Assembly (NCBI RefSeq): GCF_001426685.1
Contig: NZ_LMFB01000041.1
Coordinates: 97,537 to 161,536, forward strand
Length of the DNA stretch: 64,000 nucleotides
Direction of reading: 5' to 3'
Source of the DNA: Rhizobium sp. Root483D2
Lineage (GTDB): Bacteria > Pseudomonadota > Alphaproteobacteria > Rhizobiales > Rhizobiaceae
The first letter of the stretch is position 1, and each line of letters starts with the position of its first letter. Below, one piece after another: positions 8,395-64,000 of this stretch. The notes under the pieces are model-generated. The model had not been told where the DNA came from, made no database searches, and saw nothing but the letters and a program-made list of their open reading frames with translations. Made by a program: the position numbers and the translations under genes.

Positions 8395-8505
8395 GGCAAG
8401 CTCCTGTTTTGTTGTCTCCAGCCGCTAGTTTTAGGGGTTAAAGATTTTGGAAGGCTTAACGTTTGGCAAATCCGGCCATGAAAAAATGCTTTCACACCTT
8501 GGCAG

Positions 8506-8535
8506 ACAAAAACGGGCAGCCCTGAGGACTGCCCG
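8506..8535 (-). terminator. Rho-independent terminator of fumC
   Basis: Read on the minus strand, CGGGCAG and CTGCCCG pair with a GC-rich loop, followed by TTTTTGTC. It lies about 35 bp beyond the fumC stop. Confidence 0.85.
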
Positions 8536-8567
8536 AATGATCTACCGGAGATTGCGTGCTTGCCGTC

Positions 8568-9959
8568 TCAGGAAGGGCTGATCATCGTTTCGGGGCGCAC
8601 CGCCGCGTCGAACTCGGCATCGGTGACGTAACCGCCGCCGACAGCTTCTTCGCGTAGTGTCGTGCCGTTCTTATGGGCGGTCTTGGCGATCTTGGCGGCA
8701 TTGTCATAGCCGATCTTCGGGGCAAGCGCCGTGACGAGCATCAGCGAACGGTCGAGGGCCGCCTTGATATTGTCTTCGCGCGCCTCGATGCCGACGACGC
8801 AATTGTCGGTGAAGGAGACCACGGCATCGGAGAGCAGCTGGACCGACTGCAGGAAGTTATAGGCCATCAGCGGATTGTAGACATTGAGTTCGAAATGGCC
8901 CTGGCTGCCGGCGAAGGTGAGGGCGGCATTGTTGCCGAAGACCTGAACGCAGACCTGGGTCAGCGCTTCGCACTGGGTGGGGTTGACCTTGCCCGGCATG
9001 ATCGACGATCCGGGCTCGTTTTCCGGCAGCGACAGTTCGCCAAGGCCGGAGCGCGGGCCGGAGCCGAGGAAGCGGATATCGTTGGCGATCTTGAAGAGGG
9101 CGGCTGCGGCCGAATTGATGGCGCCGTGGCTGAACACCATCGAATCGTGGGCGGCGAGCGCTTCGAACTTGTTGGGGGCGGTGACGAAGGCGATGCCGGT
9201 GATCGCGGCGATCTCCTCGGCAACCTTTTCGGCAAAGCCGATCGGCGCGTTGAGGCCGGTTCCGACCGCCGTGCCGCCTTGTGCCAGTTCGCAAAGGCCG
9301 GGCAGGGTCATTTCGATGCGCTTGATCGAGGAGGCGACCTGTGCGGCATAGCCGGAGAATTCCTGGCCGAGCGTCAGCGGCGTGGCATCCTGCGTGTGGG
9401 TGCGGCCGATCTTGATGATATGGTCGAAGGCCTTCACCTTCGCGACGAGCGCGGCATGCAGGTGCTTCAGGGCCGGCAGGAGGTCATGGACGACACGTTC
9501 GGCGCAGGCGATGTGCATGGCCGTCGGATAGGTGTCGTTCGACGACTGGCTCATGTTGACATGGTCGTTCGGATGCACCGGCTTCTTCGAGCCCATGACG
9601 CCACCGAGCATTTCGATGGCCCGGTTGGAGATGACTTCATTGGCGTTCATGTTGGACTGCGTGCCGGAGCCCGTCTGCCAGACGACGAGCGGGAAATGAT
9701 CGTTGAGCTTGCCGTCGATGACTTCCTGGGCGGCCGCGATGATCGCGTTGCCGACGGTCGGGTCAAGGCCCTGCAGTTCCATGTTGGCGCGGGCGGCGGC
9801 CTGCTTGACGATCCCCAAGGCGCGCACGATCGACAGCGGCTGCTTTTCCCAGCCGATCTTGAAATTGCCGAGTGAGCGCTGTGCCTGTGCGCCCCAATAG
9901 CGGTCGCTGGCAACGTCGATCGGGCCGAACGTATCTGTTTCCGTGCGCGTTGAAGTCAT
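8568..9959 (-). CDS. fumC: Fumarate hydratase, class II
   Basis: Interconverts fumarate and L-malate in the TCA cycle, as an oxygen-stable homotetramer without an Fe-S cluster. The 463-residue protein carries the aspartase/fumarase signature [11 protein letters not shown] near residue 320, the substrate-binding stretches [13 protein letters not shown] and [14 protein letters not shown], and [11 protein letters not shown] with the catalytic-site histidine. Length and motifs are normal for FumC. A terminator follows. The 560 bp upstream hold no convincing gene. Confidence 0.98.
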
Positions 9960-10522
9960 CTGAAATCCCTGCTTTCGTCATGCGGTGGAGGACCGGGGCG
10001 GTTTCAAGGCCGGGCGGTTGACACCGGAAGGTGGATTTTGCCGCCGGGTGCGGCGGTCTAAAGCTGTGATGCGGTTCTCTCTGGCCCAGGTGCCCGGTGC
10101 TTGTAAAGAGGTTGTGAGGGCGGGCGCCATGCTACAATCGTTTAAAATATCATCCCGCCGGTCTTTCCGGTGGTTGCGCGTGGAGATGGCTATTCGCCGC
10201 ACCTCCCGCACGCCTGCCTGTGCCTTTTCAGACACAAGCGCCGGGATAGTTTTACCGGCATTCTCAGCAGTTTTAATGCGGCAGGCCGATTTTCTCGCAT
10301 TGTTGAAAAATAATGCAAGGATTTCAAATTTTTGGATGCCCTCATCCGTCTTCTTCATGCAGCCGTTCTCACAGATTTGTGACGGTCTGCGCGGGTCTTG
10401 CCAGCTGGCCGTTTCCTTTTCATTCACCATCCTTTCTTATAAGTACGAAAGCCTGGTGACATGACGGAGCATCAGGCGCGAACCGCTGGTGGCGGCAATG
10501 CGATACGGGGACGAGTGAGCCA
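9960..10522. other. Gene-poor interval between fumC and the L,D-transpeptidase gene
   Basis: Open frames exist on both strands (about 150 codons each), but they overlap almost completely, lack convincing ribosome sites and domains, and have low-complexity basic composition, so neither is annotated. The interval presumably contains the divergent promoters of fumC and the L,D-transpeptidase. The part around 10290-10330 is more AT-rich than its surroundings. No structured RNA was recognised. Confidence 0.4.
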
Positions 10523-12400
10523 ATGAAGTTGATGAAGACTGCTGCGATCGTGACACTGATGACCGGGTGCGCGTTTGCCTCTCTCGGTGTGCACAATGCC
10601 GAAGCGCTGACCCTCATGGATCTTTTCCGCAAGAAGAGGCCGGTTGCCGAGGAATACCAGCCTTTGCCGGGTGTCGAGCAGACACAGCCCGTGCAGAAAC
10701 AGGCGGCACGGCCGCTGCCCAAGGTGACGTCGCCGCAATATTATACCTATAAGGCCGAGCCGCTGCGCCGGATCGCCACGGCAAAGCTCGTCGATCCTGT
10801 GGTGACCGGTTCCGTCAGTACCGACGTTTCGGCAACGGCGCCGGTGGACGCGCCAGCCGGTGCGCGCCAGTTTCTTCCAGACGTCACCGCTTACGCTCCG
10901 GCCGATATCGCAAAGGCGGTCGAGGCTTTTTACACGGGCCGCGACGGCTTCGTCTGGATCGACGGCGAAGCGCCGAATGCAGCCGCCAAAGCGGCGCTGA
11001 CTGTTTTGGGGCAGGCGGCAAGCGTCGGTCTTGATCCGCAGGATTATGCCGTCACGGTTCCATCCGATATGTTCGACCGCAACGACATGCCCGCGCGCGA
11101 AAAGGCGCTGGTCGAGTTCGAAATCCAACTGTCTGCCGCAACGCTCACCTATATCGCTGACACCGTGCGTGGCCGCATCGATCCAAACAAGATTTCCGGC
11201 TATCACGATTTCAAGCGCAAGGACGTCAACCTCACCGGCAAGATGGAGAATATCGCCAGAAGCCATGACGTTGCCGCCTATCTGAATTCGCAGACGCCGA
11301 CCGGTGTCGAATTTCAGGCGCTGAAGCGCGAACTGGCGGCCCTTCAGGCCGAGAGCGGTGATGCACCGCGGATTGCGATTGCGCCGGGCACCTTGTTGAA
11401 GCCAGGGATCAGCAATCCGGAGCTGGCCAATGTGGTCGCTGCCATCCGCGCCAAGGGCTCGGATGCGCTGAAGGTCGAACACGCGCTGACGCTGTCGGCC
11501 TATCAGGGTACGCCGGACTATACGCCGGACCTGGTGGCGCTGGTCGAAGGTTTTCAGAAAGAACACGGCCTGACGCCTGACGGTGTCGTCGGCAAGGCGT
11601 CGATCCGCCTGCTCACGGGTGGCGACACGACAGAAAGCAAAGCCGCCAAGGTGCGGATCGCCATGGAGCAGGCCCGCTGGCTTCCGGGCGATCTCGGCAG
11701 CCGCTATGTGTTCATCAATCAGCCCGCCTTCATGGTGTATTACCACGATCAGGGTGCTGAGCAGTTTGCCATGCGCGTGGTCGTCGGCTCCAAGGCGCAC
11801 CAGACATTCTTCTTCCAGGACGAGATCCAGACGGTCGAGTTCAATCCCTATTGGGGCGTACCGCAGTCGATCATCATCAATGAGATGCTACCCAAGCTGC
11901 GCAACGATCCCGGTTATCTCGACCGTCTCGGCTACCAGGTGGAAGTGAAGGGGCGGCCGGTTTCGTCCTACGACGTCAACTGGAACGGCTCGACCGCCGG
12001 CGTCGCCGTGCGCCAGCCGCCAAGCAGCGACAATGCGCTGGGCGAGTTGAAGATCCTGTTCCCGAATGCGCATGCCATCTACATGCACGACACACCGTCA
12101 AAGAGCTTCTTCAAAAAGGACGACCGGGCGCTGAGCCATGGCTGCGTGCGCCTGGCCGATCCGCGCAAGATGGCGGCAGCCGTGCTTGGAACGACGGTCG
12201 AGGATGTCGGCAAGCAGATTGCCGGTGGCCGCAACAAGGGCGTGTCGGTACCGGAGAAAATCCCGGTCTACGTAGCCTATTTCACCGCATGGCCGAACAA
12301 GGACGGTACGGTCGAATATTTCCATGATGTCTATGATCGCGACATGTATATGGACCGCGCCCTTGAGGCCACTCGCCTCGCCCGCCGCGCCGAGGGGTGA
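10523..12400 (+). CDS. L,D-transpeptidase (YkuD domain, YcbB/LdtD-like)
   Basis: Periplasmic peptidoglycan cross-linking enzyme (625 aa) that forms 3-3 links between meso-diaminopimelate residues. Order of parts: signal peptide (MKLMKTAAIVTLMTGCAFAS); a Pro/Lys-rich spacer; a YcbB-type scaffold domain (about 120-260); a peptidoglycan-binding domain (VEGFQKEHGLTPDGVVGKAS, about 345-370); and the YkuD catalytic domain with H-x-SHGCVR, catalytic Cys541. Rhizobiales have many such enzymes and rely heavily on 3-3 links during polar growth, which makes its presence in the same window as the GPR/RgsE protein notable. The start has a weak ribosome site. Confidence 0.93.
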   Translation: MKLMKTAAIVTLMTGCAFASLGVHNAEALTLMDLFRKKRPVAEEYQPLPGVEQTQPVQKQAARPLPKVTSPQYYTYKAEPLRRIATAKLVDPVVTGSVSTDVSATAPVDAPAGARQFLPDVTAYAPADIAKAVEAFYTGRDGFVWIDGEAPNAAAKAALTVLGQAASVGLDPQDYAVTVPSDMFDRNDMPAREKALVEFEIQLSAATLTYIADTVRGRIDPNKISGYHDFKRKDVNLTGKMENIARSHDVAAYLNSQTPTGVEFQALKRELAALQAESGDAPRIAIAPGTLLKPGISNPELANVVAAIRAKGSDALKVEHALTLSAYQGTPDYTPDLVALVEGFQKEHGLTPDGVVGKASIRLLTGGDTTESKAAKVRIAMEQARWLPGDLGSRYVFINQPAFMVYYHDQGAEQFAMRVVVGSKAHQTFFFQDEIQTVEFNPYWGVPQSIIINEMLPKLRNDPGYLDRLGYQVEVKGRPVSSYDVNWNGSTAGVAVRQPPSSDNALGELKILFPNAHAIYMHDTPSKSFFKKDDRALSHGCVRLADPRKMAAAVLGTTVEDVGKQIAGGRNKGVSVPEKIPVYVAYFTAWPNKDGTVEYFHDVYDRDMYMDRALEATRLARRAEG

Positions 12401-57730: not shown

Positions 57731-60700
57731 TCAGCTGAACCGTCCGGCGGCATGAGCGAGCATGGTGTAGACCTTGCCCGTGTCCGACGTCAGGTAGGTC
57801 TGCGTCATCACCTTGTCGCGGTCGTTGCGGGCGACGTCGCCGAGCAGTTTTTCGAAGTCGGCGATATAGCGATCGACGGCGGTGCGGAATTCCGGTTCGC
57901 GGTCATACTTGCGCTTGATCTCGTCGAAGGTCTGCTGGCCCTTGAGCGTATAGAGGCGGCGCGTGAACACGTCGCGTTCGCCGCGCTGGTAGCGGCGCCA
58001 GAGATCGACGGAGGCATCGTGATCGATGGCGCGGGCGATATCGACCGACAGCGAGTTCAGCGATTCCATCACATGGCGCGGGTTGCGTGTGTCGCCGGAG
58101 CGGGCCGCAGGCGCTGCCGGCTGCGGTTCCGCAGTGCGCTGGACCGGTGCTGCTGTGGTTGCGGGGTCCTCGTCACGCGAAGCACCGCGCAGGAGGTCGC
58201 GCATCCAGCCGCTTCCTTCTTCCGTCCGCTGGCTGCCTGCTGCCTGTGGCTCCGCCTGACGGGCAACGGGCTGTTGAAGGGCAGGCTGCTGAACGGCCGG
58301 CTGCTGGGCAACGGGCTGCGGCGTTGCGGGACGCGGCTGCTCGATACCGAGGCTGCCGCGAAGGGCGGGCTCAGGGCGGCGTGGCTCAGGCGCGGGCTGC
58401 TGGGTTACGGCGCGGACCGGGGCGGGCGCTACGGCCTGCTGGATGGCCTGCTGGGCCGTTGTCGGCTGGCGGACGGACGGCTGGGCGATCTCGAGCTGGC
58501 CGGAGGATTTGCCGATGATGTCGGACAGTTCCTGCAGCGCCTTGATCTGTTCGGCGACCGCACGGCGCATGACCGAGGCATTTTCCTTGGCTTCTTCCGG
58601 CAGGTCGAAGGCGCCGCGCTTCAGTTCCTCGCGGGTCATGTCGAGTTCCTTGCGGATCTCGTGCGCCGAGCGGCGGATTTCGTCGGTGGCCCCGCTGAAG
58701 CGGCTGACCGCCTCTTCGACGGCCTGGCGGATGGCCGTGCCCATATGCTCGGCTGTGCCATCGGATTTCTTGCTGGTTTCGGTCATCAGGCGATCGATGT
58801 CCGAGAGCGATGCACCAACGCTGCCGCGCAGGCGGGAGGCAACTTCCTTTGACCGTTCCTCGGCACGCACGAAGGCGCCTTCGACCGAGAGGCTTGCATC
58901 TTCGCCGGCCTTGGTGACGGCGGCGCGCATGGCTTCGCTGGCGGAGGCGGCGCGGGCTTCGGCTTCCGAAAGCGTCTTGCTGACATTGGCGAAGGACGAC
59001 TGGACACCGGCGCGCAGGTTGCTGGCGATCTCGTTGGAGCGTTCCTCTGCCCGCACGAAGACCGATTCGACCGACAGGCTCGCTTCGTCGCCAGCCTTGA
59101 CCACCGCGTTGCGCATGGCTTCGGCGGCCGAAGCGGCGCGCTGTTCGGCTTCGCTCAGAATGCGGCCGACATCGCTGAAGGACGACTGGATGCCGGAGCG
59201 CAGGTTTCCGGCGACCTGGGCCGAGCGGTCTTCCGCGCGCTGGAAGGCGCCATCGACGAAGCCTTCAAGCGCATGCATGGTCTTTTCGATCTCTTCGGAC
59301 CGGCTGACGAGACCGATGGAAAGGGTGCGCAGCGCATCCTGGCGCTCCTCGAGCGTGCTGACCAGATTGGACTGGGCGGCGGCAAGCAGATCGGACGCTT
59401 GGCTGAGAACCTTGGAATGGTCTTCGAAGCGGCCGACAATGCCGCCGATCTGCGACAGGGTGGAGCCGGAAATATCGGCCAGCTTATCGACCTTGCCTTC
59501 GAGAAGCCGGGTCGAGGTGGACAGCATGTCGGAGGCGCGGGTGGCGGATTCGGAGAAGCGCGCGGTGGTGGATTCCAGCTGCTCGTCCATGGCACCGAGA
59601 TTGGTGCTGGCCTGTTCGATGACCCCGGCGATCGAGCTGTTGCTGGCAGCCAGCTGGTCGATCAGGCCCATGGCCGTCGATTGCAGACGGTTTTCGACCA
59701 TCTTCATGGCCTTGGCCGTCTCTTCGGCACGGCTGGAGATCGCATTCAGCGTCTCGCCGGTGCGCTCGGTCAGGCTGTCGAGCAGGCTGGCATTTTCAGC
59801 GCGCAGACGCTGCGCACTCTGCTGGGCCACTTCGCTGATCCGGTCGGCCGCTTCCTTGCCGGTGGCGGCATACTGGTCGATGATCGGACGGGCCTGCTCG
59901 TCGATGATGCGTGTCAGCTCGGCGGACCGGCCAGCGAGCATCGAGTTGAGCTCGCGGGTGCTGTCGTCAAGCGTGGTGCGGATCGAGTTGCCACGGGTCT
60001 CCAGCGCCTTCTCGACATCGCTAAGGCTCTGGTTGAGCGAGGACGCCTGTTCGGCAACGCGCGACTGGGTCTGGGCGATGCGGGCGGCAGCGCCATCGGA
60101 TGCTTCGCCAACGGAACGGGCAAGCTCGGCGCTGCGCATCGCGGCGGTCGCTGCCGTCTGCTCCACCGCCGACTGGAAATCGGCCTGGCGTGCCGCCATC
60201 GCCTGGGCAAAATCGTCGCCGGCCTTGGCGAGCAGTTCGGCCGAGCGCTGGGCTTCGGCGTCGATGCCCTGGGCCGCTTCGCCGACGGCGCCGCGCAGGT
60301 TGGTGACGAGGCCGGCGGCCTTGCCCTCGATCGTGCGGCTGACATTGTCGAGGCCGATTGACAGCGCGCGGTCCATGGTGCCGAGGCGCTCTTCGATACG
60401 GCCTGTGCCACCTTCGATGCTGGCTTCGATGCGGGTCGCGGCAGCGGCCGTGACGCGGTCGAGTTCGGCGGTATGGGTGGTGAGCGTCTCGGTGATACGG
60501 GTCGCGGCTTCGCCGCTGATGCGGCCGATCTCGTCGGCGCGGCCGGAAAGGCTGACCGCGATCCGGTCGGCGGCGAGCGTGCCGACGCGGTCAAGTTCGG
60601 CCGTGTGGTCGGACAGGGTCGAGGCGATGCGCGCTGCGGCGGCATTGCCGACGCGGTCGATCTCTTCGGTCCGTCCAGCCAGGCTGTCGGTGATCATGGC

Positions 60701-63700
60701 GGCAGCTGCCGTGCTGATCTGGTCGAATTCGGCCGTATGGCTGGAGAGCGCATCGGCAATCCGCGCGGCGGCGACGCTGCCGATGCGGTCGATCTCGCCG
60801 GTGTGGCCGGACAGGCTGCCGGCAATGCGCGCAGCGGCGCGGTCGCTGACTTCATCCAGTTCGGAGACCTTGGCAGAGAGCGTATCGGCGATCCGCTGAC
60901 CGGCATTATCAACGAATTCGCTGACACCACCGACACTTTCGCGGATGCGGCCCTCAAGGGCGCCAAGGCTGGTTTCGATGCGGGCGCCGGTCTCATCGAC
61001 GCTGCTGTTGATCGCGGTGAGCGACGTATCCATACGGTGCGTCAGCGTGTCGGCAGCGCGGCTGATCTGGTCGGCCGTTTCGCCAAGCTGGGTGGCCACG
61101 TGGCTGGTGCTGGCGAGCATGCGCTGCTCAAGTGCAAGCGCACTTCTGTCGATCGTGCTTCCCAGTTCGGCCTGGCGTTCGTCCAGCGACATTTCCAGCA
61201 TGCTGGCGGAGGTGGCAAGCGTCGTGGCGATCGACATGGACTGTTCGGCCAGAACATCGGACAGCTGGCCGGTGCCTTGCGCCACGGCGACGTGGATCGC
61301 GTTGATCCGGTCGGCGAGCGTTGCGCGGATCTGATCGTGGGTGGAGGACAGCGAGGTCGATAGCTGATCGGCGCGGCCGGCAAGAGTCTGCTCGATATCG
61401 GCTGCGCGGCCGGTCATGGCGAGAGCCAGCTCGGAGGCATGACCGGACAGGGCGCTGGCAATTTCCGCCGAGGTGCTGGTCATCGTGCCGGCAATATCGC
61501 TGACGCGGCCCGAGAGATCGTCGGCAATCGCAGCAACGCGGCCGGAGAGTTCCTTTTCGATGTCGCTGACGCGGTCGGCCATTGTTTCGGCAATGGCGCT
61601 GGCGCGGTAGGACAGGCTGTCGGCAATTTCCTCGGTCTGGGTGCTGAGCGTTTCCGTCATTTCGGTGGCGCGGGCAGCCATGGTGCCGGAGATTTCGGCG
61701 GAACGTTCCGACAAAAGCATGTCGAGCGTGGTGGTCTGGGTCAAGAGCGTGTCGCCGAGCGCGCGGCTGCGTTCGCTCATGACGCTCTCCAGGCGATCGG
61801 CAGTGCCGCCGATGGCCTGTTCGATCGCACCCGTCGAGGAGGTCAAGACGTTGGCCAATGCACCCGTGCGGTGCGACAGGATGGTGTCGAGACGTTCCGC
61901 TGTGCCATCGAACGCGCCATCAATGGCTGCGGTCGATGAGGAGAGGACATTGGCGAGCGCGCCGGTGCGTTCCGACAGGATGGTGTCGATCCGCTCGGCC
62001 GTACCGTCAAACGCGCCGTCGATGGCGGCGGTCGATGTGGACAGGACATTGGCAAGGGCGCCGGTGCGCTGCGAGAGGATCGTGTCGATCCGCTCGGCCG
62101 TGCCGTCGAATGCACCGTCGATCGCGGCCGTCGATGTGGACAGGACATTGGCAAGAGCGCCGGTGCGTTGTGCCAGGATCGTGTCGATCCGCTCGGCCGT
62201 ACCGTCGAATGCGCCGTCAATGGCTGCGGTCGAGGTGGACAGCACCTCGGCAAGCGCGCCGGTGCGCTGTGACAAGATGGCGTCGATCCGCTCGGCCGTG
62301 CCATCGAATGCGCCGTCGATCGTTGCAGTCGAGGTGGACAGCACCTCCGCAAGGGCGCCAGTGCGCTGCGCCAGGATTGAGTCGATCCGCTCGGCGGTGC
62401 CATCAAAAGCGCCGTCGATGGCTGCTGTCGAAGAGGACAGGACGTTGGATAGGGCGCCGGTGCGCTGTGCCAGGATCGTATCGATCCGTTCCGCCGTGCC
62501 TTCAAAGGCGCTGTCGATGGATTCCGAGCTTGCGGCGAGCAGGCTGGAGAGTTCGACGGTTCGTTCCGACAATGTATTGTCGAGGCGCAGCTGGCTGGCG
62601 GCAATCGACGTGGTGATCTCGTCGGCGCGGTTGGTCAGCGTTTCCTCGATGCGGCCGTGGATGGCCTGCAGGCCGTCAATAAAGCCGGTTGTGTGCGTGT
62701 CCAGGTTTTGAGCGAGCTGCTGGTTGCTGGCATTGATCGCGCTGGTGCGGGCATCCAGCGTGTCGGCAAGCCGCTGCTGGCTCTCGGTAAGTGCCGTTTC
62801 AAGCGAGATTGCGCGCTGCGCAAAGCCGTTTTCGAGCCGGTCCTGGGCCGCCGTCAATGCGCCCATCAGGCTGCCGGACCGTTCCGACAGAACACCGTCG
62901 ATGCGGACATGGGCGTTGCCGATGGCGTCGCTGAGTTCGGCTGTCTTGCCGCTGATGGTCTGCTCGATGAAATCCTGCGTGGTGCCGAGCGTCGTCGCCA
63001 ATGTCAGCGACTGATCCTGCAGGGCGGTTTCGAAGCGGTCGATGCCGCCGTCCAGAATGCCGCCGATGGAATCGGCACCGCCGGTCACCGACTGGTTGAT
63101 CCGGGCAAGGCTTTCCATCAGCTTGGAATCGAGCAGGCTGGCGCGCTTGTCGAAGGCGGTGGCAAATTCGTGGAAGCGGCTGTCGAAGGCGGTGGCCAGG
63201 TGACCGACGGTCGTCTGCAGTTTCTCATCAAAGAAACCGGTGCGCAGGTCGATGTCCATGATCATGTCATCGGCACTGGACTTCAGGCTCTGGCGGAAAT
63301 TCGCGCCCTTTTCGTCCAGCGTCGCATTCAGCGTATTCAAGATATCGTCGAGACCGCCGGTAATGGCCTGCTGGCCGATATTGAGGCTCTCGTTGAGATC
63401 GCGCGTACGGGCAATCAGCGTCTCGTTGAGCTGGCGGGCGCGCTCATTGAGCGCGGCATTCAGCTTTTCCGTATTGGCATCGAGCGAGGAGGCGCGGGTC
63501 TCGAACTGGCCGAGAAGCTGCTGTCCGCGCTTTGCCAGCGTTTGGCTGAGATTGTCCAGCCGTGTGTCGAATTCGTTGCTGAGGGAGACGCCGGCGGTGG
63601 TCAGGCCCGAAAGCAGGGCGTCGGTGCGGGTCGACAGCATGGCGCCGATCGTCTGTGTGGCGTTATCGGAACGCTCCATCAGGGCGGCGGCACGGGTTTC

Positions 63701-64000
63701 GATCATCGAGGCAAAAGCTTCGCCGGAGGTGGCGATGCGGTTTGAAATGTCGTCGCCGGCAATCGCCAGCTCGTCCTTCAGCTGGGTATGGGCACCCGAG
63801 ATCGACGAGCGGATGCGTTCGGCATGGCCGACGATCGATTCGCGCTCAAGACCCAGTTCCTGCACGAGGGTGCGGACACGCAGTTCATTGTCGCTGTAGC
63901 TGCGCTCGAGCGCGTTGACTTCGGAATGAACCAGCGTCTCAAGCTCGGTGGCGCGCGCGATCGTGCGCTCGATGCCTTCGTTCATCGCCGATACTTCGCG
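57731..64000 (-). CDS. GPR/RgsE-type giant polar-growth protein (5' end outside window)
   Basis: Very long helical protein, at least 2089 residues in the window, with the frame still open at base 64000. It matches the apolipoprotein-like GPR of Agrobacterium and RgsE of Sinorhizobium, which form a ring at the growing pole. The N-terminal membrane part is missing. Most of it is amphipathic repeats: seven 33-residue units (61805-62497), fourteen 11-residue units (61286-61747), seven or more 22-residue units (60419-60880), then about 62-residue repeats (RAEERS ... LSEAEARAAS). A Pro/Gln-rich linker (58.2-58.5 kb) leads to a conserved globular C-terminus (SVDLWRRYQRGERDVFTRRLY). It lies convergent to petABC. 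Confidence 0.85.
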   Translation of the reverse strand, partial: REVSAMNEGIERTIARATELETLVHSEVNALERSYSDNELRVRTLVQELGLERESIVGHAERIRSSISGAHTQLKDELAIAGDDISNRIATSGEAFASMIETRAAALMERSDNATQTIGAMLSTRTDALLSGLTTAGVSLSNEFDTRLDNLSQTLAKRGQQLLGQFETRASSLDANTEKLNAALNERARQLNETLIARTRDLNESLNIGQQAITGGLDDILNTLNATLDEKGANFRQSLKSSADDMIMDIDLRTGFFDEKLQTTVGHLATAFDSRFHEFATAFDKRASLLDSKLMESLARINQSVTGGADSIGGILDGGIDRFETALQDQSLTLATTLGTTQDFIEQTISGKTAELSDAIGNAHVRIDGVLSERSGSLMGALTAAQDRLENGFAQRAISLETALTESQQRLADTLDARTSAINASNQQLAQNLDTHTTGFIDGLQAIHGRIEETLTNRADEITTSIAASQLRLDNTLSERTVELSSLLAASSESIDSAFEGTAERIDTILAQRTGALSNVLSSSTAAIDGAFDGTAERIDSILAQRTGALAEVLSTSTATIDGAFDGTAERIDAILSQRTGALAEVLSTSTAAIDGAFDGTAERIDTILAQRTGALANVLSTSTAAIDGAFDGTAERIDTILSQRTGALANVLSTSTAAIDGAFDGTAERIDTILSERTGALANVLSSSTAAIDGAFDGTAERLDTILSHRTGALANVLTSSTGAIEQAIGGTADRLESVMSERSRALGDTLLTQTTTLDMLLSERSAEISGTMAARATEMTETLSTQTEEIADSLSYRASAIAETMADRVSDIEKELSGRVAAIADDLSGRVSDIAGTMTSTSAEIASALSGHASELALAMTGRAADIEQTLAGRADQLSTSLSSTHDQIRATLADRINAIHVAVAQGTGQLSDVLAEQSMSIATTLATSASMLEMSLDERQAELGSTIDRSALALEQRMLASTSHVATQLGETADQISRAADTLTHRMDTSLTAINSSVDETGARIETSLGALEGRIRESVGGVSEFVDNAGQRIADTLSAKVSELDEVSDRAAARIAGSLSGHTGEIDRIGSVAAARIADALSSHTAEFDQISTAAAAMITDSLAGRTEEIDRVGNAAAARIASTLSDHTAELDRVGTLAADRIAVSLSGRADEIGRISGEAATRITETLTTHTAELDRVTAAAATRIEASIEGGTGRIEERLGTMDRALSIGLDNVSRTIEGKAAGLVTNLRGAVGEAAQGIDAEAQRSAELLAKAGDDFAQAMAARQADFQSAVEQTAATAAMRSAELARSVGEASDGAAARIAQTQSRVAEQASSLNQSLSDVEKALETRGNSIRTTLDDSTRELNSMLAGRSAELTRIIDEQARPIIDQYAATGKEAADRISEVAQQSAQRLRAENASLLDSLTERTGETLNAISSRAEETAKAMKMVENRLQSTAMGLIDQLAASNSSIAGVIEQASTNLGAMDEQLESTTARFSESATRASDMLSTSTRLLEGKVDKLADISGSTLSQIGGIVGRFEDHSKVLSQASDLLAAAQSNLVSTLEERQDALRTLSIGLVSRSEEIEKTMHALEGFVDGAFQRAEDRSAQVAGNLRSGIQSSFSDVGRILSEAEQRAASAAEAMRNAVVKAGDEASLSVESVFVRAEERSNEIASNLRAGVQSSFANVSKTLSEAEARAASASEAMRAAVTKAGEDASLSVEGAFVRAEERSKEVASRLRGSVGASLSDIDRLMTETSKKSDGTAEHMGTAIRQAVEEAVSRFSGATDEIRRSAHEIRKELDMTREELKRGAFDLPEEAKENASVMRRAVAEQIKALQELSDIIGKSSGQLEIAQPSVRQPTTAQQAIQQAVAPAPVRAVTQQPAPEPRRPEPALRGSLGIEQPRPATPQPVAQQPAVQQPALQQPVARQAEPQAAGSQRTEEGSGWMRDLLRGASRDEDPATTAAPVQRTAEPQPAAPAARSGDTRNPRHVMESLNSLSVDIARAIDHDASVDLWRRYQRGERDVFTRRLYTLKGQQTFDEIKRKYDREPEFRTAVDRYIADFEKLLGDVARNDRDKVMTQTYLTSDTGKVYTMLAHAAGRFS
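60419..60880 (-). repeat. Seven 66-bp units coding 22-residue repeats
   Basis: Within the giant protein, each unit reads like LSSHTAEFDQISTAAAAMITD plus one residue, with a conserved Leu start, Glu at 7, and ARI near 17-19. The units are protein-level repeats, with DNA identity only moderate. One more degenerate unit lies just upstream (to 60946). Confidence 0.85.
61286..61747 (-). repeat. Fourteen 33-bp units coding 11-residue (hendecad) repeats
   Basis: Units such as LSGRVAAIADD, LSGRVSDIAGT and MTGRAADIEQT follow each other without gaps. Leu/Met at position 1, Arg or Gln near 4, and Ile at 8 recur. Eleven-residue periodicity suits a right-handed coiled coil or lipid-surface helix. Confidence 0.85.
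61805..62497 (-). repeat. Seven tandem 99-bp repeats coding 33-residue units
   Basis: Each unit begins TAERID and reads TAERIDTILAQRTGALSN, then a VLSSSTAAIDGAFDG-like end. Seven units of exactly 99 bp fill 61805-62497 with high DNA identity; the last copy is more diverged. 33 is three times the 11-residue period. High identity makes copy-number change by recombination likely. Confidence 0.9.

What the first reader, a model, noticed from the sequence alone, without database searches (positions are those of the whole stretch)
57731..64000. Giant polar-growth protein built from 11-, 22- and 33-residue repeats
The repeat blocks in this protein all have periods that are multiples of 11: fourteen 11-mers, seven or more 22-mers and seven 33-mers. 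This is directly visible in the translation. Apolipoproteins use the same 11/22 period for lipid-surface helices, and hendecads also form right-handed coiled coils, so the protein may be one continuous hendecad rod that shapes or scaffolds the growing pole. The match to GPR/RgsE is from memory of the family; the unified hendecad reading is my inference.
Basis: partly seen in the sequence, partly recalled or inferred. Interest (0 to 1): 0.7.

Follow-up and report, generated by a model that had tools for sequence, protein, structure and literature searches.

The report
Register-locked hendecad rod in pole protein
This is the local version of a known giant bacterial pole-growth protein, and its long helical rod is built from 11-residue steps so regularly that related species lengthen or shorten it almost only by steps that keep the same side of the helix facing the same way.

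Summary
Partly confirmed. The gene runs past the window edge. The full protein is 2,310 aa: two membrane helices, a ~1,500-residue rod (plus ~300 residues of looser helix), a Pro/Gln-rich linker and a conserved 121-aa C-terminal domain. It is 49.5% identical to Agrobacterium GPR (identified here by contig and protein length).
Period 11 dominates (hydrophobic autocorrelation 0.53 at lag 11, 0.21 at lag 7). It is not one unbroken hendecad: a register model finds 16 breaks, ten equivalent to inserting 7 residues, and a 62-residue repeat is 5x11+7.
Beyond the finding: (1) between near relatives the rod changes length almost only by 11a+7b residues (165 of 172 gaps under 60; in the own genus 31 of 32 gaps are multiples of 11). 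(2) The Pfam apolipoprotein score survives shuffling within the 11 columns (97-105 bits, native 105; none when fully shuffled), so it reports the pattern and is no evidence of descent. (3) Sampled homologues outside the order use mostly a 25-residue metre (period 3.575); inside it, mostly hendecads (3.660).
Best reading: a self-registering, near-straight coiled-coil strut rather than a lipid-coating helix. Oligomeric state and lipid binding are untested.

The parts
57731..64000 (-). GPR/RgsE homologue, residues 222-2310 of 2310 plus stop; 5' end (start codon, two membrane helices) lies beyond the window
   Evidence: identity to GPR
58694..64000 (-). helical rod inside the window (aa 222-1990); hendecad pattern strong to about aa 1650, looser after
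   Evidence: periodicity; proline-free run aa 206-1592
61016..62731 (-). longest unbroken hendecad register, aa 645-1216 (52.0 hendecads)
   Evidence: two positions 100% and 98% ILVMF; predicted nearly all helix, (low confidence)
61811..62503 (-). seven 33-residue repeats (aa 721-951)
61046..61705 (-). tandem 11-residue units (aa 987-1206)
60380..60907 (-). eight 22-residue repeats (aa 1253-1428), outer ones weaker
   Evidence: (132-bp array)
58679..59236 (-). 62-residue repeat (5x11+7), two good copies and a decayed third (aa 1810-1995)
58097..58651 (-). Pro/Gln-rich linker (about aa 2005-2189, limits by eye)
   Evidence: composition of aa 1991-2180
57734..58096 (-). conserved C-terminal domain (aa 2190-2310), predicted all-helical
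   Evidence: in 8 relatives' domains no Pfam family matched more than one member, best E 0.021

Best explanation
The gene encodes the GPR/RgsE pole protein of a Rhizobiaceae-type bacterium. Two N-terminal membrane helices (seen here by hydropathy) anchor it to the inner membrane (shown in relatives, published). From there a very long, nearly straight, proline-free helix runs through the cytoplasm. Its hydrophobic stripe is two large residues per 11, spaced 7 and 4 apart, flanked by Ala/Ser/Thr. I infer that several rods pair along this stripe as a hendecad coiled coil, so each copy registers on the next; that is the strut or scaffold that holds the growth-pole machinery. Fully extended, aa 206-1690 would span about 223 nm (0.15 nm per residue, textbook value), the scale of the published 200-nm ring. 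The C-terminal helical domain is inferred to dock partners. Length is free to drift, register is not: the rod evolves by adding or removing units that keep the stripe in place (11, 22, 33, or mixes with 7 such as 18, 29, 36).
For: Family. Period 11/3 and core positions. Lag 11 above lag 7 in 80 of 81 homologues. Rod indels between near relatives: 119 of 220 multiples of 11, against 3 of 280 in the region from the C-side anchor to the C-terminal domain; of gaps under 60, 165 of 172 equal 11a+7b, where 29 of the integers 1-59 do; for pairs at least 70% identical in six groups the counts are 118 of 120, 116 of 117, 116 of 117 and 107 of 107 under four gap settings. Own genus: 13 distinct anchor-to-anchor lengths from 1301 to 1719, 11 in one residue class mod 11 and 2 offset by 4; Stappia 7 of 7 in one class. 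Rods net acidic in 196 of 196, median 1 proline, 90th percentile of Trp 0: unlike a lipid helix, fitting a soluble coiled coil. Published coiled-coil deletions interfere with wild type yet form paired foci on their own (PMC8262873 sections 7, 8), as register mismatch in mixed oligomers would predict.
Against: No structure, oligomer prediction or binding data. The model of aa 645-1216 has low confidence (pLDDT 63, pTM 0.24) and is broken into four long helices, a real fold-back or an artefact. Published foci are about 50 nm, smaller than an extended rod (PMC8262873 section 12). In-register indels could come from tandem-repeat recombination alone. In Mesorhizobium (9 of 64), the Aminobacter set (2 of 19) and Ensifer-like (0 of 9) the gaps are mostly not multiples of 11; they fit only the wider 11a+7b rule, and Mesorhizobium rod lengths fall in ten residue classes. 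Whole deletion A-IV-1 is severe although its register jump (7) turns the face little.
Confidence: 0.5

Rival explanations
1. Apolipoprotein-like: the 11/22-mers are amphipathic helices that lie on membrane lipid and organise lipid synthesis at the pole (the published proposal and part of the first reader's).
For: PF01442 scores 239 bits; apoA-IV is the best PDB sequence match, E 8.9e-5 for the whole protein and 2.3e-7 for aa 987-1260; mean hydrophobic moment 0.34.
Against: Shuffling residues within the 11 columns keeps 100, 105 and 97 bits against 105 native; a full shuffle matches nothing: the score is the pattern. Own rod has 0.13% Pro, 1.1% Lys, net charge -1.1 per 18; printed apoA-IV stretches (246 residues) have 3.25%, 7.3%, -0.42. 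Windows passing a HeliQuest-type lipid score (formula and 0.68 cut-off recalled): 2.9% own, 14.9% apoA-IV.
Confidence: 0.15
2. Folded bundle: the long helix folds back on itself into compact bundles, so that each focus is a globule, not a strut.
For: Low-confidence model with four long helices; 50-nm foci.
Against: No proline in aa 206-1592; two of the three breaks in the model fall in the two stretches under pLDDT 50; anchor-to-anchor lengths vary by 418 residues within one genus in steps of 11, not of a helix-turn-helix unit. The published argument that folding must occur takes 600 nm for 1,700 helical residues; at 0.15 nm per residue it is 255 nm.
Confidence: 0.25
3. Repeat-slippage by-product: indels are multiples of 33 bp because tandem DNA repeats recombine in register; the rod's register is not itself selected.
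For: DNA arrays with units of 99, 132 and 186 bp are present, and lineage repeat units match lineage indel sizes (29 and 36 in Mesorhizobium).
Against: Within aa 645-1216 units that differ widely still keep two positions 98-100% hydrophobic; the residue class is kept across the 13 distinct lengths of the genus but for a 4-step in two. Not decisive: repeats can only slip in register once the register exists.
Confidence: 0.1

Closest known systems
GPR of Agrobacterium tumefaciens (Atu1348; PMC8262873)
   Same: Two N-terminal membrane helices, giant hendecad rod, Pro-rich region before the end, conserved C-terminal domain; 49.5% identity
   Different: 195 residues longer; 9 of 13 gaps between aa 582 and 1933 are multiples of 11; different local repeats (lag 22 dominates GPR, lag 33 here)
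RgsE of Sinorhizobium meliloti (SMc00190; PMC7327166)
   Same: Same family by published homology to GPR, size and topology
   Different: Not compared directly: its sequence was not identified among the genomes fetched. The one Ensifer-like relative examined (unnamed, name inferred) has top lag 29
Exchangeable apolipoproteins (PF01442; apoA-IV)
   Same: 11/22-residue amphipathic periodicity
   Different: Almost no proline, lysine-poor, more acidic; the profile score is explained by per-column composition
Hendecad (right-handed or straight) coiled coils
   Same: Core spacing 7 and 4, period 3.66
   Different: 52 hendecads in one register, about 135 hendecad lengths in all (aa 206-1690); oligomeric state unknown
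TipN of Caulobacter (882 aa by PMC13170164)
   Same: Printed as similar or analogous to GPR (PMC8546619, PMC13170164, passages only)

Membership tests
GPR/RgsE | Sequence homology along the whole length | tested here: met
   1010 of 2041 aligned residues identical to the 2,115-aa GPR; score 4551 against 53 +/- 32 for 20 shuffles. GPR was recognised by contig and protein length, not by name
GPR/RgsE | Two N-terminal membrane helices, bulk cytoplasmic | tested here: met
   Two hydropathy peaks, 1.9 and 2.9, in the own frame; the cytoplasmic side is from the literature, not tested
GPR/RgsE | About 2,000 aa, dominated by helix, PF01442 matches | tested here: met
   2,310 aa, 239 bits for the window part, helix in the 572-aa model (low confidence)
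GPR/RgsE | Ring at the growth pole, needed for rod shape | not testable with these tools
   Published: ring for GPR, polar localisation and shape for RgsE
Exchangeable apolipoproteins | Profile score beyond what the 11-column composition gives | tested here: not met
   Three column-shuffled versions score 97.3-105.3 bits, native 104.9, one full shuffle no family. This removes the score as evidence; it does not exclude common descent
Exchangeable apolipoproteins | Proline-punctuated 22-mers (recalled) | tested here: not met
   No Pro from aa 206 to 1592
Exchangeable apolipoproteins | Lipid binding | not testable with these tools
   Only a sequence score: 2.9% of windows pass, apoA-IV stretches 14.9%
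Hendecad coiled coil | Hydrophobic period 11/3 with two core positions | tested here: met
Hendecad coiled coil | Defined oligomer with buried stripe | not testable with these tools
   No multimer modelling available
TipN | Homology to Caulobacter TipN | not tested

The most novel reading that the evidence does not exclude
An older alphaproteobacterial membrane-anchored pole protein with a shorter rod of 25-residue repeats (25 = 11+7+7, period 3.575, left-handed side of a straight helix) was re-metred once, on the branch to the Rhizobiales, into a hendecad rod (period 3.660, right-handed side) about twice as long, in the clade that largely lost MreB and grows from one pole. The rod then became a register-locked strut whose length changes only in whole helical quanta.
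Probability: 0.35. Interest if true: 0.85.

Novelty: new member of a known kind. Interest (0 to 1): 0.6.

Why it matters
GPR is classified in print as an apolipoprotein, and a lipid-sorting role is inferred from that. If the match is only periodicity, the working model should shift towards a coiled-coil strut. The register rule makes an open question (how this giant protein organises the pole) testable with a cheap deletion series: 22 residues against 20, 21 or 23. It offers a reading of a printed surprise, that a deletion of about 20 residues interferes more than deletion of the whole domain containing it. The change of metre at the base of the order links rod geometry to the clade that grows from the pole.
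Full report
WHAT IS THERE. The frame named in the finding is real but cut by the window edge. The neighbouring bases of the same contig extend it to an in-frame upstream stop; an ATG gives 2,310 aa. The window holds residues 222-2310. Two hydropathy peaks, aa 122-140 and 164-182 when the frame positions are counted from that ATG, lie outside it. Layout: N-terminal region, two membrane helices, rod (aa 206 to about 1690, looser helix to about 1990), Pro/Gln-rich linker, 121-aa C-terminal domain.

PERIODICITY. Over aa 216-1890 hydrophobic residues autocorrelate at lag 11 (0.53), 22 (0.53) and 33 (0.51), at lag 7 only 0.21; the maximum over 500 shuffles is 0.07 at lag 11. Windows of 220 residues between aa 331 and 1540 peak at period 3.65-3.67, not 3.5. 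A trained register model puts 89% ILVMF at two of eleven positions and finds 16 register breaks, ten of them a skip of 4, equivalent to inserting 7 residues. In aa 645-1216 the two positions are 100% and 98% ILVMF.

FAMILY. The C-terminal domain is found in 41 of 41 genomes of the relatives draw, 142 of 150 of the order, 119 of 121 of the family, own genome included each time, and in 39 of 39 of the genus I take for Agrobacterium, because 7 of the 11 telomere-resolvase matches among 394 family genomes lie in it. One of these 39 has the gene on a contig of 2,841,580 bases (the C58 chromosome length, recalled) and a Met-started frame of exactly 2,115 aa, the printed length of GPR (PMC8262873). 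Own against this: 1010 of 2041 identical. In a class-wide draw the domain is in 108 of 289 genomes; leaving out own and three of the same order, 104 of 285. In the phylum draw (70 of 299) every match lies in the class (the output does not say how many genomes of other classes were drawn). PMC7327166 (passages) already reports distant RgsE homologues in Emcibacterales and Rhodospirillales.

REGISTER-LOCKED LENGTH. I compared 201 frames (some are fragments). Own against GPR, the gaps from aa 582 to 1933 are 11, 4, 11, 11, 11, 15, 99, 11, 11, 29, 11, 29 and 33: 9 of 13 are multiples of 11. Between nearest relatives inside eight groups, 119 of 220 rod gaps are multiples of 11, and 55 of the other 101 are 4 or 7 mod 11 (the rest mainly 3, 26 times, and 10, 11 times); the region after the C-side anchor gives 3 of 280. 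That control is not the same kind of repetitive DNA, so it does not exclude a recombination bias. Under 60 residues 165 of 172 rod gaps are 11a+7b; of gaps from 7 to 59, 165 of 169 in the rod and 14 of 48 in the control region. For pairs at least 70% identical in six groups: 118 of 120, 116 of 117, 116 of 117, 107 of 107 under four gap settings. By lineage (multiples of 11): own genus 31 of 32 (sizes 11 to 330), Agrobacterium 46 of 51 (mostly 22), Stappia 12 of 12, Hoeflea 14 of 26, Shinella 5 of 7, Mesorhizobium 9 of 64 (mostly 29 and 36), the Aminobacter set 2 of 19, Ensifer-like 0 of 9 (18 and 29). These sizes bring the helix face back to nearly the same side. Anchor-to-anchor length: own genus 1301 to 1719, 19 of 21 in class 3 mod 11 and 2 in class 7; Stappia 7 of 7 in one class; Hoeflea 6 of 7; Agrobacterium 12, 6, 1, 1 in classes 10, 3, 7, 4; Ensifer-like 9, 4, 3 in classes 0, 4, 7; Mesorhizobium (33 rows, one bad) spread over ten classes. 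Of 24 same-genus genomes found, 20 were fetched; the other four had shorter open frames.

CHANGE OF METRE. I took 61 genomes of the order (own plus 60 of the matches, chosen by me for long genes and then for divergence) and 56 loci outside it (from the 104 genomes, mostly one per family; one genome gave two). Inside: 59 have a significant repeat lag, 51 of them a multiple of 11, none 25/50/75; period median 3.660, 51 of 61 at 3.63 or more. Outside: 47 have one, 39 of them 25, 50 or 75, one a multiple of 11; period median 3.575, none of 56 at 3.63 or more. Median rod 1459 against 724 residues. Lag-11 exceeds lag-25 autocorrelation in 60 of 61 against 6 of 56. All 106 top lags are 11a+7b, but 63% of the lags tested are, so that alone is weak. 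On a tree of the C-terminal domain (126 columns, few for 117 rows) the order is one side of a branch with weak support, 68. Exceptions inside: L119 and L122, from small genomes, without significant repeats and with period 3.565; L113 and L120, short rods, at about 3.60; three Mesorhizobium at 3.625. That the order largely lacks MreB is from PMC7327166. Handedness is inferred from the period alone.

THE APOLIPOPROTEIN SCORE. Of aa 645-1216, native scores 104.9 bits on PF01442; three shuffles that only permute residues within each of the 11 columns score 100.2, 105.3 and 97.3; a full shuffle matches nothing. So the score needs no common ancestry; it does not disprove it. The test was made on this protein, not on GPR itself. 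Composition points the same way: 196 of 196 rods are net acidic, own rod against apoA-IV stretches.

MECHANISM. Shown here: membrane helices by hydropathy, long proline-free helix-compatible rod, stripe, register conservation, C-terminal domain. [quoted passage not shown] PMC7327166: passages). Inferred: rods pair along the stripe, giving a strut near 223 nm. PMC8262873 section 12 states that an extended 1,700-residue helix would be 600 nm; 0.15 nm per residue gives 255 nm, so the size argument for folding is weaker than printed, though foci of 50 nm remain smaller than that.

A RETROSPECTIVE CHECK. On GPR the same model finds 17 breaks and gives register jumps at the domain limits printed in the text, taken as deletion ends: A-IV-4 (232-494, 263 residues) 4, the commonest natural step; the coiled-coil deletions as 413-433 and 1100-1120 (21 residues) 10, a turn of about -98 degrees; A-IV-1 (1036-1381) 7. 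The paper calls it surprising that the small A-IV-4cc deletion had the most severe interference, and both small deletions formed paired foci on their own; A-IV-1cc also complemented well. This fits register mismatch in mixed oligomers. It does not explain the severity of A-IV-1, and the paper's end points are inconsistent (413 to 434 would be 22 residues, jump 0).

NOVELTY. Searches of the held library for hendecad with apolipoprotein/growth pole and for growth pole ring with coiled coil, hendecad, repeat list no paper with both growth pole ring and hendecad; the main text of PMC8262873 has no occurrence of repeat, hendecad or amphipathic. The 2019 paper that first described GPR is not held and was not seen. 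The protein is a new member of a known family; the indel rule, the shuffle control and the change of metre are what I did not find in print.

Noticed in passing
L004:7830-8231, 8431-8802, 10047-11822: Upstream of the gene, beyond the window, lie an Hpt-like frame, a 2Fe-2S ferredoxin-like frame and folP-folB-folK-like frames (names by eye; only folP was used in a search).
   Followed up: partly
window 58443-60899 (+): An 818-aa open frame lies antisense to the rod; in seven of 81 loci an antisense frame was longer than the sense frame, probably an effect of composition.
   Followed up: partly
family f36 (G060, G102, G137): Three of three sampled genomes of one family of the order gave no match to the C-terminal domain (two are under 90% complete); they may be MreB-bearing, Rgs-lacking members known from print.
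   Followed up: no
family f74 (e.g. G846, G1028): Frames of only 330-368 aa match the end of the C-terminal domain at E 3e-8 to 2e-6 in several genomes; a short or rod-less relative.
   Followed up: no
G369:C1:351066-353819: A 1.0-Mb Rhizobiaceae genome carries two telomere resolvase frames of equal score and length, a divergent pair about 1.5 kb apart.
   Followed up: no
window 61016-62731 (-): Pfam Bactofilin scores 37 bits on the native rod piece, over its cut-off, but not on the column-shuffled versions.
   Followed up: no
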